From Sphingomonas telluris (GTDB lineage Bacteria; Pseudomonadota; Alphaproteobacteria; Sphingomonadales; Sphingomonadaceae): a stretch of DNA of 64,000 nucleotides. The notes beneath the pieces are model-generated. The model ran no database searches. It saw nothing but the letters and a program-made list of their open reading frames with translations, and was not told where the DNA came from. Made by a program: the position numbers and the translations under genes. The stretch's first letter is position 1. Each line of letters begins with the position of its first letter. Below are positions 23,582-28,596 of the stretch, in pieces. The stretch is taken from assembly GCF_022568775.1 (NCBI RefSeq), contig NZ_JAKZHW010000001.1:992001-1056000 (forward strand), in the 5' to 3' direction.

Positions 23582-25618
23582 ATGGCGAAAAACGAAGCGA
23601 CTGAAGTTGAAACGGCCGATGAGGGCGATGCTCCGCTCATCGACATGAACGATGCGTCGATCAAGAAGATGATGGCGCGCGCCGAAAAGCGCGGCACGAT
23701 CACCATCGACGAGATCAACGCGGCGATCCCGGCCGACCAGAACGAGATGATCGAGGACATAATGTCGCGCTTGTCCGAGCGCGGCGTGACCGTCGTCGAG
23801 AATGCCGAGGACAACGACGACGAGGACGAGGAGAAAGAGGCCGAGCCCGAGGACGAGGTCGATCCCCTCGACGACGGCGGTCCCCGTCCTGCAGCGGCGG
23901 TCAAGAAGGAAGCCGTCGACCGTACCGACGACCCGGTCCGCATGTACCTGCGCGAGATGGGCGCCGTGGAGCTTCTCTCCCGTGAGGGCGAGATCGCCAT
24001 CGCCAAGCGCATCGAGGCCGGCCGCGACATCATGATCTGGGGCCTTTGCGAAAGCCCCATGACCTTCAACGCCATCATCGAATGGTCGAACGCCCTCAAC
24101 GAAGGCCGCATGCAGCTGCGCGAGATCCTCGATCTCGAAGCCATGCTCTCGAAGGGCCCGACCGCCGAGCAGATCGCCGAGAGCGAGGAAGGCGAGGAAG
24201 GCGGCGACGGCGAGATCAGCGAGAAGACCGCCGGCCCGACCATCAAGGAAGAAGAGGACGAGCCCGAAGAGGCCTCCGCCGACGGCGAGGAAGAGGACGA
24301 TATGGTCGAGCGGCGCGCCAAGCCGCAGGCCGAGGAGGAGGACGACGAGAACGCTCTGTCGCTCGCCCAGATGGAAGAGACCCTCAAGCCGCAGGCGCTC
24401 GAGAAGTTCGCGACCATCACGGCCCTCTTCAAGAAATTCTCGAAGCTCCAGGCCTCGCGCCTCGACGCCCTCCAGAGCGGCGCCGAATTCCCCGCGTCCG
24501 ACGAGAAGAAGTACCAGAAGCTCCGCGAGGACCTCACGGCCGAGGTCGAGAGCGTCCAGTTCCACGGCGCCAAGATCGAATATCTCGTCGAGCAGCTGTA
24601 CAGCTACAACCGCCGCCTGATGACGCTCGGCGGCCAGATGCTGCGCCTTGCCGAGCGCCATCGCGTGCCGCGCAAGGCGTTCCTCGAAAGCTACACGGGC
24701 AACGAGCTCGACGACGGCTGGCTCGACCGCGCGTCCGGTATCGACAAGAAGTTCGCCGCCTTCGCCACGTCGGAGCGCGACAGCGTCGAGCGTATCCGCA
24801 TGGATATCTCGGAAATCGCGCAGCAGGTCGGCACCTCGCTGCCCGAATACCGCCGCATCGTGAACATGGTGCAGAAGGGCGAGCGAGAGGCGCGCATCGC
24901 GAAGAAGGAGATGGTCGAGGCCAACCTCCGCCTGGTGATCTCCATCGCCAAGAAGTACACGAACCGCGGCCTGCAGTTCCTGGACCTCATCCAGGAAGGC
25001 AACATCGGCCTGATGAAGGCGGTCGACAAGTTCGAGTACCGCCGCGGCTACAAGTTCTCGACCTACGCCACCTGGTGGATCCGGCAGGCGATTACCCGCT
25101 CGATCGCCGACCAGGCGCGGACCATCCGCATCCCGGTCCACATGATCGAGACGATCAACAAGCTCGTCCGCACGGGCCGCCAGTTCCTGCACGAGACCGG
25201 CCGCGAAGCGACGCCGGAGGAGCTCGCCGAGCGCCTTTCGATGCCGCTCGAAAAGGTCCGCAAGGTGATGAAAATCGCCAAGGAGCCGATCAGCCTCGAA
25301 ACGCCGATCGGCGACGAGGAAGACAGCCACCTGGGCGATTTCATCGAGGACAAGAACGCCGTCATCCCGGTGGACGCCGCGATCCAGTCTAATTTGAAAG
25401 AGACCGTCACCCGTGTGCTGGCGTCTCTGACGCCGCGTGAGGAGCGCGTGCTGCGCATGCGCTTCGGGATTGGGATGAACACCGATCATACGCTGGAAGA
25501 GGTCGGGCAGCAGTTCTCGGTGACGCGTGAGCGTATTCGTCAGATCGAGGCGAAGGCGTTGCGGAAGCTCAAGCATCCTAGCCGGAGCCGGAAGATGCGG
25601 AGTTTCCTGGACCAGTAG
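23582..25618 (+). CDS. rpoD: RNA polymerase primary sigma factor RpoD (sigma-70)
   Basis: A 678-residue primary sigma factor. Region 1.1 (about 20-80) and an acidic linker precede region 1.2 ([21 protein letters not shown]). A long acidic non-conserved region (about 195-260, runs of Glu/Asp) follows. Region 2 has [20 protein letters not shown] and [19 protein letters not shown] (-10 recognition); region 3 has [15 protein letters not shown]; region 4.2 ends [20 protein letters not shown] (-35 recognition helix-turn-helix). It lies 11 bp after dnaG. Downstream it abuts the repeat that borders the HEPN island. Confidence 0.97.
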
Positions 25619-25623
25619 TTGAG

Positions 25624-25738
25624 CCGCCGAGCGCAGCGCCGCCGACGCGTAGCGTCGGCGAAGCAGCGCAAAGAGACGGCGAGATACGGCCGGCGCGCGA
25701 GCGAGCGGCCTAAGCCGCGCTGCGAGACGCGTCCGACG
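25624..25738 (-). repeat. Dispersed intergenic repeat, copy 1 (inverted relative to copies 2 and 3)
   Basis: About 115 bp directly after rpoD. Its reverse complement aligns along its length with 28482-28596. The best block, 25689-25738, matches the reverse complement of 28482-28531 at 46 of 50 positions. It contains a perfect hairpin (25640-25648 with 25652-25660, CGCCGACGC/GCGTCGGCG, 3-base loop) that may end rpoD transcription, and a second GCGGC/GCCGC hairpin. It ends four bases before the stop codon of the HEPN gene. It lacks the CGTCACGGG hairpin that precedes copy 2. Confidence 0.75.
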
Positions 25739-25742
25739 CCAC

Positions 25743-27554
25743 CTATTCGGGGGCGCCGATCAGCACGTCGGCGCGAGTTGCGTAACGCGGACGCGCCCAT
25801 ATCAACCTGCTCCGGAAGTCTTCTTCCGACAACGCAGCGTCCTCCAGCCTCCGATGGTAGGCTTCAAGTTCCATCTTCGCGTAATTAAAGATCCGAGCGT
25901 AGGTTTTGAATCCGCTGGATCCGCACGAAAAGTCGTTAGCGGATTCAAGCGCTTGGTCGAAATATTCGTGCGCTGTTTCGATGACGCTTCGCAGCCAAGC
26001 GGGCGACGTTCCCTGATGAACAACCAAGTTTCGCGCACGGTAAATACGACGCAACTGCCAGACTACTCGCTCTTGGTGAGCGTTGATCTTCTCAAGCGCC
26101 GCCTTTTGATCTCTAAATTCCGAGCGCAGGGTGAAGCAGCGATATCTCAGCAATTCAAAGTCGCCCATCTTATCGAATAATTGAGCTAATGCGGGCTCCG
26201 AAGAGGAATGAGTCAGTAAGAGCAGAACGCGCTGCGTAATCGAAGAGTCCTTCCCGCCAAAATTTTGAAGTGCGCGTGTCACCTCCCTCCGATTCCAGCG
26301 GAGCAGGTCGTATGATGCACGCTCAAACAGACGTCTGACGTAAGCAAGTCCGATACACGGCGTCACGGCGGCAATTACATCATCGACCTTACTCTTGCCC
26401 GCGCGGGACGGCGCCAAAGTCTCCAGGGATATCCAAAGATTTAGAAGTTGGTTCTGAGGCGACTCTGCCTCAAGGCTCATTGAGTGAAACTCAGATATGC
26501 TTTCAAAACGCGTCCTATCCACCCCTCGTGGGAGGGCGGATTTCTGAAGCAGCGTATCTAGTCGCTTAGCCGCCTTCTGGGGCCGATCGTCAGTTGAGGA
26601 ATGGATACGTGACTGATCTCTGAAGACACATTTGATTTCGTTCGCGCAGCATCCCTGTTCCAGCACGACTTTCGGACCAAGCGAGAAGTGGCGCTTGTGG
26701 TGATACACCCGGAACAGATTCTGGATGATCCCGACTTTGGCCTCAGCAGTCTGGATAGCTGAATACGGGTCGTAGGCTGGAACATCAGAAACCAGGAGAT
26801 ATCGGCTACCAAGTGTCTCGCCCATGAAGTCCTTCGCCTCGGCGTTCGTCGCGAACGGTTTTGGAAGCTTGGTCGAGACTTTCAAACCTAGCATGGATAG
26901 ACTTGACTGGGAGATATCGGTGACAACCCTATCGGCCGAAAAACACACTTCGAACTTATGATGATGAGGATATACTTCTTTGAAAAAGTCCTGAAGTGAA
27001 TGATCATCTAACACGTCTTCAACGTTCTCAAAAAAGAACTTTACGACGGATAAATACAAATGCTTCCTGCTTACACCCATGTTCTCAAGAGATGAGACGA
27101 GCTCCAGTACCAGCCGCTCTATTATCCCTTTCTTACCTTCGTTTACTGCGGATATGAGTTGCTTCATTACCTCGTTGATATACGTGCGCTGTGATATCTC
27201 GTCGCGCAACACGGAGAGGTTTCGTTGAAGTTCCGCCATGTCCGACGTCCTAAGTTTCGACAAAATGTCGCGCTCAGGAACGAACATAGACTTATAAGCC
27301 GATCTAGCGGACAGCCTTTTACATAATTCAGATATAATGGGTTCGATTGATGCTTCCGAGACGCCAGGCTCTTCTCGCATCAGTCGTCCGACTTGCGAGA
27401 AGGCCTCATAAACCAGACTGGGTATATTAACGGCTGGCGCTCGGTGGCTATCTAGCGAGTAGTCGAATGTGGCTTCCTCAAACCGTTGCGCGAAGAAAAG
27501 CAGGCCTTCTTTATTATCCAGTCCGTTGAATTTGGCAGTATCACGCAAAAGCAT
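25743..27554 (-). CDS. HEPN-domain (R-X4-H) protein, putative defence RNase
   Basis: A 603-residue soluble protein I cannot assign to a named family. Near the C-terminus is Arg508-Asn-Leu-Val-Val-His513 (RARNLVVHQG), the R-N-x3-H catalytic motif of HEPN ribonucleases, preceded by a helix LLNLWISLETL (about 370-380) with the conserved acidic residue Glu378; both are hallmarks of the ApeA-like HEPN domain found in phage-defence proteins. The N-terminal 350 residues have no motif I recognise (a helical part to about 180, then a mixed part with HHHKFEVCFS and EQGCCANEIKC). GGAGG five bases before the ATG at 27554 sets the start; the GTG two codons earlier is too close. Base composition is strikingly low (40 G+C in 120 at 26941-27060, against 42 in 60 in gyrA at 1141-1200), pointing to transfer. 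It is flanked by inverted repeats. Confidence 0.7.
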   Translation of the reverse strand: MLLRDTAKFNGLDNKEGLLFFAQRFEEATFDYSLDSHRAPAVNIPSLVYEAFSQVGRLMREEPGVSEASIEPIISELCKRLSARSAYKSMFVPERDILSKLRTSDMAELQRNLSVLRDEISQRTYINEVMKQLISAVNEGKKGIIERLVLELVSSLENMGVSRKHLYLSVVKFFFENVEDVLDDHSLQDFFKEVYPHHHKFEVCFSADRVVTDISQSSLSMLGLKVSTKLPKPFATNAEAKDFMGETLGSRYLLVSDVPAYDPYSAIQTAEAKVGIIQNLFRVYHHKRHFSLGPKVVLEQGCCANEIKCVFRDQSRIHSSTDDRPQKAAKRLDTLLQKSALPRGVDRTRFESISEFHSMSLEAESPQNQLLNLWISLETLAPSRAGKSKVDDVIAAVTPCIGLAYVRRLFERASYDLLRWNRREVTRALQNFGGKDSSITQRVLLLLTHSSSEPALAQLFDKMGDFELLRYRCFTLRSEFRDQKAALEKINAHQERVVWQLRRIYRARNLVVHQGTSPAWLRSVIETAHEYFDQALESANDFSCGSSGFKTYARIFNYAKMELEAYHRRLEDAALSEEDFRSRLIWARPRYATRADVLIGAPE

Positions 27555-27695: not shown

Positions 27696-27929
27696 TTAAC
27701 TTCTCCCGTAATCCCACTCTTCGACGATGCCGGAGGGATGAGGCTTGCCTTGGTCACGCAGCGCCTTCGCAAGTTTGTTGAATAAGTGGGGGTGGCCTCT
27801 CTTGCTGGTGGGATCGGCGTTGATCGTGGAGAGACCGTGCTCGGGAATGCGGAGGTGAATATCTCCGGCAGTCTCATCGAACCACAGTCCGATTGTGACC
27901 TCGGCCGTCTTAGCGTTAGGTTTTACCAT
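27696..27929 (-). CDS. Small hypothetical protein in HEPN island
   Basis: A 77-residue protein (MVKPNAKTAEVTIGLWFDET...) with a strand-rich first half (EVTIGLWFDETAGDIHLRIP) and a helical second half (SKRGHPHLFNKLAKALRDQG). The composition looks like real coding sequence. No family recognised. The stop of the upstream gene overlaps a GTG three codons before the chosen ATG (GTGA), so translation could start at 27938 (80 residues). It is separated from the HEPN gene by 141 bp, which contain a short stretch (about 27651-27672) resembling part of the dispersed repeat. Confidence 0.6.
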   Translation of the reverse strand: MVKPNAKTAEVTIGLWFDETAGDIHLRIPEHGLSTINADPTSKRGHPHLFNKLAKALRDQGKPHPSGIVEEWDYGRS

Positions 27930-27934
27930 TCTGC

Positions 27935-28420
27935 TCACCAATCATCAGTTTTCGTCGGCCCCTTCATCACGCAAATGGCAACGGCGGTCGCTGAATTGGT
28001 GAAGGCCGCCTCGGCGCTCTTCCATTGCGACCCCCACCACTTGCCGATTGGGCCCCAACCTCCGCCAGCGGTGTCATTGAATCTCTCCAAAGCCGTCTGA
28101 TCGATCCTGAAGCGACCCTCGCGAGCCTCGAAGGTAAAACGACTGCGTATCTTGAAAACTGGGAAACTGCCGTGCGTCGTGGCGTTGCGCGCGACTATGA
28201 TCCCGTTGTCCAGGTCTTGGCTAATGATGAGTTGAGCATCGACGGTCCCGCCAGCTAGGTGCTGCGCAATGCAAATGTTGGCTCGCTGAGCGATTTCTTT
28301 CTTGGTGCCTTGAGCTTGATAGATTTGGCTCGTTACGCTGGTCAGATATTCATGGGCGTTAGCAGGCGTCGCAAAGCCAACAGCGAACCCAACTAGCGCA
28401 TTTCTACAGATCGTCGACAT
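27935..28420 (-). CDS. Secreted hypothetical protein in HEPN island
   Basis: A 161-residue protein with a signal peptide (about 1-22, ending ATPANA before HEYL). The mature part has a helix with QIYQAQGTKKEIAQRAN, two central strands (DAQLIISQDLDNGIIVARN, FKIRSRFTFEAREGRFRI) and a Trp/Gly-rich region GGGWGPIGKWWG followed by an Ala-rich helix. The two-strand-plus-Trp layout resembles small secreted proteins with a TBP-like fold (DUF4468-type), but this is weak. First of the three leftward island genes. Confidence 0.6.
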   Translation of the reverse strand: MSTICRNALVGFAVGFATPANAHEYLTSVTSQIYQAQGTKKEIAQRANICIAQHLAGGTVDAQLIISQDLDNGIIVARNATTHGSFPVFKIRSRFTFEAREGRFRIDQTALERFNDTAGGGWGPIGKWWGSQWKSAEAAFTNSATAVAICVMKGPTKTDDW

Positions 28421-28458: not shown

Positions 28459-28596
28459 CGTCACGGGAGTAAATCCCGTGACGTCGGACGCGACTTGCGG
28501 CGCGGCTTAGGCCGCTTGCTCGCGCGCCGGCCGGCCTTCACCGGCTCTTCGCGCTGCTCCGGCGGCGCTCCGCGCCGGCGTCGCTGCGCTCGGCGG
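28459..28596 (+). repeat. Dispersed intergenic repeat, copy 2, with leading hairpin
   Basis: It starts with a perfect 9-bp hairpin (CGTCACGGG at 28459-28467 with CCCGTGACG at 28475-28483, 7-base loop) and continues for about 115 bp that align with the reverse complement of copy 1. It shares an exact 19-base block (28472-28490) with copy 3 (29612-29630). It lies between the island's first gene and the csbD-like gene and forms the right border of the HEPN island. Confidence 0.75.

What the first reader, a model, noticed from the sequence alone, without database searches (positions are those of the whole stretch)
25743..27554. Uncharacterised 603-residue HEPN (R-X4-H) protein in an AT-rich island next to rpoD: candidate single-protein defence RNase
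Seen: RARNLVVHQG near the C-terminus gives the HEPN R-N-x3-H catalytic motif, preceded about 130 residues earlier by a helix with the LE-L pattern that carries the conserved acidic residue. G+C is 40/120 at 26941-27060, versus 42/60 in gyrA. Known: ApeA-like and related HEPN proteins are RNases in abortive-infection systems, often with a large N-terminal sensor. Inference: the unrecognised N-terminal 350 residues are the phage-sensing part and the gene was acquired horizontally.
Basis: partly seen in the sequence, partly recalled or inferred. Interest (0 to 1): 0.8.

Follow-up and report, generated by a model that had tools for sequence, protein, structure and literature searches.

The report
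A divergent ApeA phage-defence RNase gene
The gene is a horizontally acquired, distant relative of ApeA, an already known bacterial anti-phage protein that is thought to cut RNA once infection is sensed; it is a new example of a known defence that common annotation models barely recognise, not a new kind of system.

Summary
The reading frame is real: 603 codons, minus strand, 27554-25743, with the HEPN motif R508-N-x3-H513 and acidic E378 as described. It is not uncharacterised in kind. Residues 7-571 match Ec2ApeA, an E. coli "antiviral defense protein" with solved structures (E=8.5e-60); a family profile also matches Ec3ApeA, Ec1ApeA and Ec4ApeA over most of their length. E378, R508, N509 and H513 are kept in 60 of 60 non-redundant relatives. 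Relatives are rare and scattered (1 of 397 genomes of the family, the host itself), show no regular partner gene, and in enterobacteria ride in one cargo slot of P2-like prophages. The gene has 51% G+C in a 64% window. So the RNase-defence and transfer inferences hold, but the "unrecognised" N-terminus is ApeA too. Pfam gives nothing and PADLOC only E=0.0015, hence the look of novelty. Likely mechanism: an oligomeric HEPN RNase switched on by an infection signal; the title of a 2026 preprint, which I could not read, names deoxydinucleotides.

The parts
25743..27554 (-). apeA-like gene, 603 codons (ATG at 27554, Shine-Dalgarno-like GGAGG five bases upstream)
   Evidence: ORF, sequence; match of residues 7-571 to Ec2ApeA
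26016..26033 (-). codons of R508-N-L-V-V-H513, the HEPN R-x4-H catalytic motif
   Evidence: translated; R508, N509 and H513 invariant in 60 of 60 relatives
26421..26423 (-). codon of E378, the conserved acidic residue upstream of the HEPN motif
   Evidence: stretch translated; invariant in 60 of 60 relatives
27696..27941 (-). 81-codon ORF of unknown function in the same low-G+C stretch, host-specific in the sample; not thought to be part of the system
   Evidence: found only in the host among 61 genomes of the genus
27935..28420 (-). 161-codon ORF with signal-peptide-like start (read by eye), host-specific in the sample, no confident family; not thought to be part of the system
   Evidence: found only in the host among 61 genomes of the genus
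25624..25742 (+). 119-nt repeat arm between the rpoD stop and the apeA-like stop codon; inverted copy at 28478-28596
   Evidence: 85% complementary arms, 2735 nt apart; further copies in the genome and in congeners
28478..28596 (-). second, inverted arm of the same repeat

Best explanation
The gene is a divergent member of the ApeA anti-phage family, closest among the solved members to Ec2ApeA and Ec3ApeA, acquired horizontally downstream of rpoD. Proposed working: the protein sits inactive as an oligomer; an infection-derived signal (probably short deoxy-dinucleotides, carried over from the title of an ApeA preprint) binds it; paired HEPN domains then use R508, N509 and H513 with E378 to cut RNA, which stops translation and phage growth, possibly at the cost of the cell. 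Shown here: the homology, the conserved active site, the single-gene layout and the patchy distribution. Inferred: RNase activity, the signal, the oligomer and the defence phenotype of this particular protein.
For: phmmer of the window protein against PDB sequences: Ec2ApeA 9hxi E=8.5e-60 and 9hxd E=8.8e-60 over residues 7-571, Ec3ApeA 9hxj E=2.7e-51 over 4-568. Family profile: Ec3ApeA 7.6e-160, Ec2ApeA 2.8e-159, Ec1ApeA 3.4e-30 over profile positions 20-583, Ec4ApeA 9.2e-27 over 17-579, of 592. Pairwise identity to the E. coli prophage protein of L031 26.8% over 579 columns; that protein matches the PADLOC ApeA model at 2e-12 over residues 20-534. The 9hxe sequence carries A where R508 aligns, so that residue was changed in a deposited construct. 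E378, R508, N509 and H513 in 60 of 60. PADLOC ApeA model matched by 22 of 38 family members at E up to 0.1, best 3.8e-10. Relatives lie in P2-like prophages and one in 11 of 5426 complete E. coli genomes at 99% identity or more. Within four genes of the homologue no neighbour family recurs in more than two loci. Patchy: 1 of 60 other congeners, and that copy far diverged; 1 of 397 in the family, the host itself; 3 of 398 in the phylum, the host included.
Against: Identity to the solved E. coli proteins is low (about 27%). PADLOC's ApeA model gives only E=0.0015 and only over residues 361-517 of the window protein; Pfam and NCBIfam give nothing at E up to 5. Single-sequence matches to Ec1ApeA (E=0.018) and Ec4ApeA (3.5e-7) cover only the HEPN part. 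No activity, ligand or structure was tested. The Ec2ApeA residue R551, which is E in the two-chain entry 9hxd, is not conserved (N557 here), so the same oligomer cannot be assumed. Neighbour scans gave no clear enrichment of defence genes.
Confidence: 0.87

Rival explanations
1. A HEPN ribonuclease with a role other than defence (RNA processing, stress response or a toxin with an unseen partner).
For: No activity test exists for this protein; several chromosomal relatives have housekeeping genes as neighbours, and the defence-model counts of near and far neighbours give no clean enrichment.
Against: Match over residues 7-571 to proteins deposited as antiviral defence proteins; relatives sit in a cargo slot of P2-like prophages that holds other defence-type genes in other strains; patchy distribution; no neighbour family in more than two loci.
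Confidence: 0.07
2. A different HEPN defence type that merely resembles ApeA, such as the DzbB protein of Dazbog.
For: DzbB's PADLOC model is matched by 10 of 38 family members at E up to 0.1, best 2.5e-5, and weakly by the distant relative in G021 (0.0067).
Against: The window protein does not match DzbB at E up to 5; the matches to solved ApeA proteins are far stronger and near full length; no second gene recurs in more than two loci.
Confidence: 0.04
3. An inactive remnant carried along after transfer.
For: Low G+C and a lone copy among the congeners sampled leave open that it is transient.
Against: Intact 603-codon frame with a plausible ribosome-binding site, the invariant catalytic residues kept, and two full-length relatives at 75-76% identity.
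Confidence: 0.02

Closest known systems
Ec2ApeA (PDB 9HXB, 9HXD-9HXI), E. coli 2-156-04_S4_C1, deposited as bacterial antiviral defense protein
   Same: Collinear over residues 7-571, same R-x4-H and upstream E. The 164 residues of Ec2ApeA that I compared are identical to the P2-like prophage protein of locus L031; that protein is a single cargo gene
   Different: About 27% identity; different host class; chromosomal site by rpoD instead of a prophage; the R551 position is N557 here
Ec3ApeA (PDB 9HXJ)
   Same: Match over residues 4-568, E=2.7e-51 with the single sequence
Ec1ApeA and Ec4ApeA (PDB 9HXN, 9HXM)
   Same: Matched over most of their length by the family profile
   Different: Single-sequence match only in the HEPN part, so more distant
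ApeA of the HEPN survey (PMC3710099, passages read) and of Gao et al. 2020 (recalled; seen only through passages of PMC7699616 and PMC10952713)
   Same: Apea-type HEPN with conserved Rx4-6H
   Different: The survey describes a mostly-beta ApeA-NTD1; this protein has no Pfam match at all

Membership tests
ApeA | C-terminal HEPN domain with R-x4-H and upstream acidic residue | tested here: met
   R508, N509, H513, E378 present and conserved in 60 of 60; dimer geometry not modelled
ApeA | Near full-length collinearity with solved ApeA proteins | tested here: met
   Residues 7-571 to 7-565 of Ec2ApeA, E=8.5e-60; profile to Ec1-Ec4ApeA
ApeA | Single-gene system, no obligatory partner | tested here: met
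   24 of 26 genome-contig loci, the window and L072 were listed; within four genes no neighbour family recurs in more than two loci (for example a cold-shock-domain protein in L003 and L008). L024 and L025 had no called homologue and were not examined
ApeA | Match to the PADLOC ApeA model | tested here: inconclusive
   Window protein E=0.0015, HEPN part only; 22 of 38 relatives at E up to 0.1, best 3.8e-10; the Ec2ApeA-type protein of L031 2e-12 over 20-534
ApeA | Match to Pfam Apea domain models | tested here: inconclusive
   No Pfam family for the window protein at E up to 5; HEPN_Apea in 1 of 38 relatives at 0.018. The L031 protein, near-identical to the solved Ec2ApeA, has no Apea match either, so the absence says little about kinship
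ApeA | Oligomeric assembly as in the deposited entries (10 or 12 chains; 2 in 9hxd) | not testable with these tools
   Structure prediction not available; R551 of Ec2ApeA not conserved
ApeA | RNase activity, activation by deoxydinucleotides, phage protection | not testable with these tools
   Preprint title seen only in a reference list; text not held
DzbB (Dazbog) | Match to the PADLOC DzbB model | tested here: not met
   No match for the window protein at E up to 5; 10 of 38 relatives match at E up to 0.1

The most novel reading that the evidence does not exclude
The window protein and its two 75-76% relatives stand on a long shared branch (0.85 changes per column), and the N-terminal part is less conserved in the family than the HEPN part; they could be an ApeA lineage whose sensor answers to another signal, or whose HEPN domains assemble differently (N557 in place of R551), from the E. 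coli proteins.
Probability: 0.15. Interest if true: 0.45.

Novelty: new member of a known kind. Interest (0 to 1): 0.27.

Why it matters
It extends the Ec2ApeA type of defence to a lone, horizontally acquired gene in a genus where 59 of 60 sampled congeners have no match and the one other copy is far diverged, and shows that Pfam and NCBIfam miss this protein while PADLOC's ApeA model barely reaches it. The 60-sequence set gives conserved residues outside the HEPN site (A266 in 60 of 60; H286 and H357 in 59; D262 in 58) that can be held against the Ec2ApeA structures to look for the ligand site.

Tried and rejected
Rejected: that the N-terminus is an unknown domain (it aligns with Ec2ApeA). 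Rejected: that a second gene belongs to the system; the two ORFs beside it are found only in the host among 61 genomes, and within four genes of the homologue no neighbour family recurs in more than two loci (shared ones include a cold-shock-domain protein in L003 and L008 and an ABC transporter-like family near L026 and L072). Neighbour enrichment: 89 proteins within two genes of the homologue and 104 proteins four to six genes away were scanned against PADLOC; both sets hold defence models (retron reverse transcriptases and type II methyltransferases near; type I-F Cas proteins far). The output lists 25 of 113 and 25 of 39 families, one protein can match many models, and there is no per-protein count, so I call enrichment undecided.

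Led nowhere: single-sequence scan of viral contigs, phage records, island DNA in plasmids, PADLOC ApeA model in 99 genomes of the order (0 matches, and 0 of 14 controls, so uninformative). Plasmid records hold mostly partial, distant matches: 2 records with the window protein; 106 with the L031 protein, 2 of them covering 80% or more. Paper searches turned up no held paper on the Ec2ApeA structures; one search listed 20 of 153.

The gene calls behind searches come from a simple script of mine, not a standard gene finder; starts may be off and some genes missed. One search left out sequences under 480 residues and dropped 9 of 69 as duplicates at 95% identity or more.

Full report
What is there. 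The minus-strand frame 25743-27554 (603 codons from the ATG at 27554; a GTG two codons earlier gives 605) is intact and preceded by GGAGG five bases upstream. It lies tail-to-tail with rpoD (23582-25618). The gene lies in the stretch of the 64 kb window poorest in G+C: the gene is 50.9%, third codon position 56.8%, against 88.7% for rpoD; the lowest 1,812-base stretch starts inside it.

What it is. Pfam and NCBIfam give no family for it at E up to 5, and PADLOC gives ApeA at E=0.0015 over residues 361-517 only, which explains why it looks uncharacterised. A search of 5.8 billion proteins found 38 proteins, itself included (only the 7,979 candidates sharing most words were scored). A profile of these 38 matches PDB sequences deposited as bacterial antiviral defense proteins: Ec3ApeA (E=7.6e-160), Ec2ApeA (2.8e-159), Ec1ApeA (3.4e-30) and Ec4ApeA (9.2e-27, deposited as putative), each over most of its length. 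The window sequence on its own matches Ec2ApeA at 8.5e-60 over residues 7-571 and Ec3ApeA at 2.7e-51, but Ec4ApeA (3.5e-7) and Ec1ApeA (0.018) only in the HEPN part. The E. coli protein of locus L031, which is near-identical to Ec2ApeA, matches the PADLOC ApeA model at 2e-12 over residues 20-534 and no Pfam Apea model. The window protein is therefore an ApeA protein from end to end, and the N-terminal 350 residues are not an unknown domain, although they are less conserved (median identity to the 59 other aligned relatives 26% for residues 1-350, 33% for 351-603).

Active site. In an alignment of 60 relatives (69 sequences of at least 480 residues, 9 dropped as duplicates at 95% identity), E378, R503, R506, R508, N509 and H513 are invariant, as are A266, W374, Y405, L469, R472 and H493, among others; H286 and H357 are kept in 59 of 60 and D262 in 58 of 60. 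The HEPN survey PMC3710099 (passages read) describes Rx4-6H, the polar residue after R and an upstream acidic residue as the predicted RNase site. The deposited sequence 9hxe has A in place of the R508 equivalent, so depositors changed that residue.

Mechanism. Inferred from the family: HEPN domains act as homodimeric RNases (PMC13405049, introduction passage). [quoted passage not shown] I saw that title only, in its reference list, and the preprint is not held. The PDB entries list 10 chains (9hxb, 9hxi, 9hxm, 9hxn; 40 chains over the four entries of the 9hxe sequence), 12 chains (9hxj) and 2 chains (9hxd). In the printed alignments 9hxd has E where 9hxi has R551 (numbering). I infer, and cannot show, that R551 serves the larger assembly. 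That position is N557 here and varies across the 60 (R in 7), so the assembly of the window protein is open. The oligomer, ligand and RNA target of this protein are all inference.

Horizontal transfer. Of 100 genomes (the host, 60 congeners and 39 from other genera of the order), the host and one congener match. The congener's match comes as two overlapping pieces at 82.6 and 167.2 bits, lies about 210 kb from its rpoD, and sits on a branch of nearly 4 changes per column, so it is not an orthologue in any simple sense. Of 397 genomes of the family only the host matches, and of 398 of the phylum three, the host included. I took 10-kb stretches at rpoD from 15 of the 60 congeners: none has the gene there, and what follows rpoD varies. 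The 81- and 161-codon ORFs next to it are each found only in the host among 61 genomes of the genus. The tree groups the protein with P0002 and P0003 (support 100/100), then with P0005 and P0004, within a wider group that holds the alphaproteobacterial loci L002, L007, L016 and L019.

Relatives elsewhere. One scan of genome contigs gave 26 loci: alpha-, beta- and gammaproteobacteria, Desulfopila, Fulvivirga, Parabacteroides and Bacillota. The profile scan of viral contigs gave 11 loci. In 9 of these 11, by my gene calls, the gene lies on the opposite strand between the baseplate gene V and tail completion genes of a P2-like prophage; L037 has other genes on one side and L039 is cut at one end. 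The annotated E. coli record NCTC9008 shows the same slot. The gene is in 11 of 5426 complete E. coli genomes at 99% identity or more (a twelfth has 8% of it at 75%). The 164 residues of Ec2ApeA that I compared are identical to the L031 prophage protein; elsewhere the printed Ec2ApeA differs from it at a few positions. So the structure-solved protein is a near-identical copy of this prophage cargo.

Verdict. A known kind of defence protein in a new place. The most useful outcome is the list of conserved positions outside the HEPN site and the warning that annotation libraries barely see this branch.

Noticed in passing
L031:7314-10645 and E. coli hits H35-H74: In E. coli P2-like prophages the slot between baseplate gene V and the tail completion genes holds varied cargo. 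Of 40 records listed (of 1045 with a match), 17 are empty (1518 bases), 19 carry extra genes (among them the ApeA type, SIR2 family, AIPR family, PcfJ-domain, DUF5677, DUF6216, IS1 and unnamed proteins), and 4 match on one side only. Three were read in annotation. It is not the cos-proximal A-Q hotspot of PMC9122126; that paper's introduction says two variable loci with anti-phage genes were already described in P2-like phages (passages read), and this may be one of them.
   Followed up: partly
window 25624-25742 and 28478-28596: A 119-nt inverted repeat, 85% complementary, frames the low-G+C stretch (2735 nt between the arms). Eight matches to the first arm in the genome, itself included, four of them 117 nt or longer (40 of 62 candidates scored). 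Related repeats follow rpoD directly in at least two congeners (L050, L065), so it is probably a genus-wide intergenic repeat, but it may have served as the recombination border.
   Followed up: partly
L072:10071-11669 (G021): A second genome of the genus holds a very divergent relative (222 bits by profile) far from rpoD; it matches no Pfam family and only DzbB weakly in PADLOC (0.0067). Probably an independent acquisition.
   Followed up: partly
window 27696-28420: Two ORFs (81 and 161 codons), host-specific in the sample, share the low-G+C stretch; the second has only sub-threshold Pfam matches (Imm-NTF2 E=0.068).
   Followed up: partly
L097 (Planococcus plasmid): A distant ApeA-like hypothetical protein on a mobilizable Bacillota plasmid, directly upstream of a tyrosine recombinase gene (found with the L031 protein at 24% identity), suggests that the wider family also rides on plasmids.
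   Followed up: no
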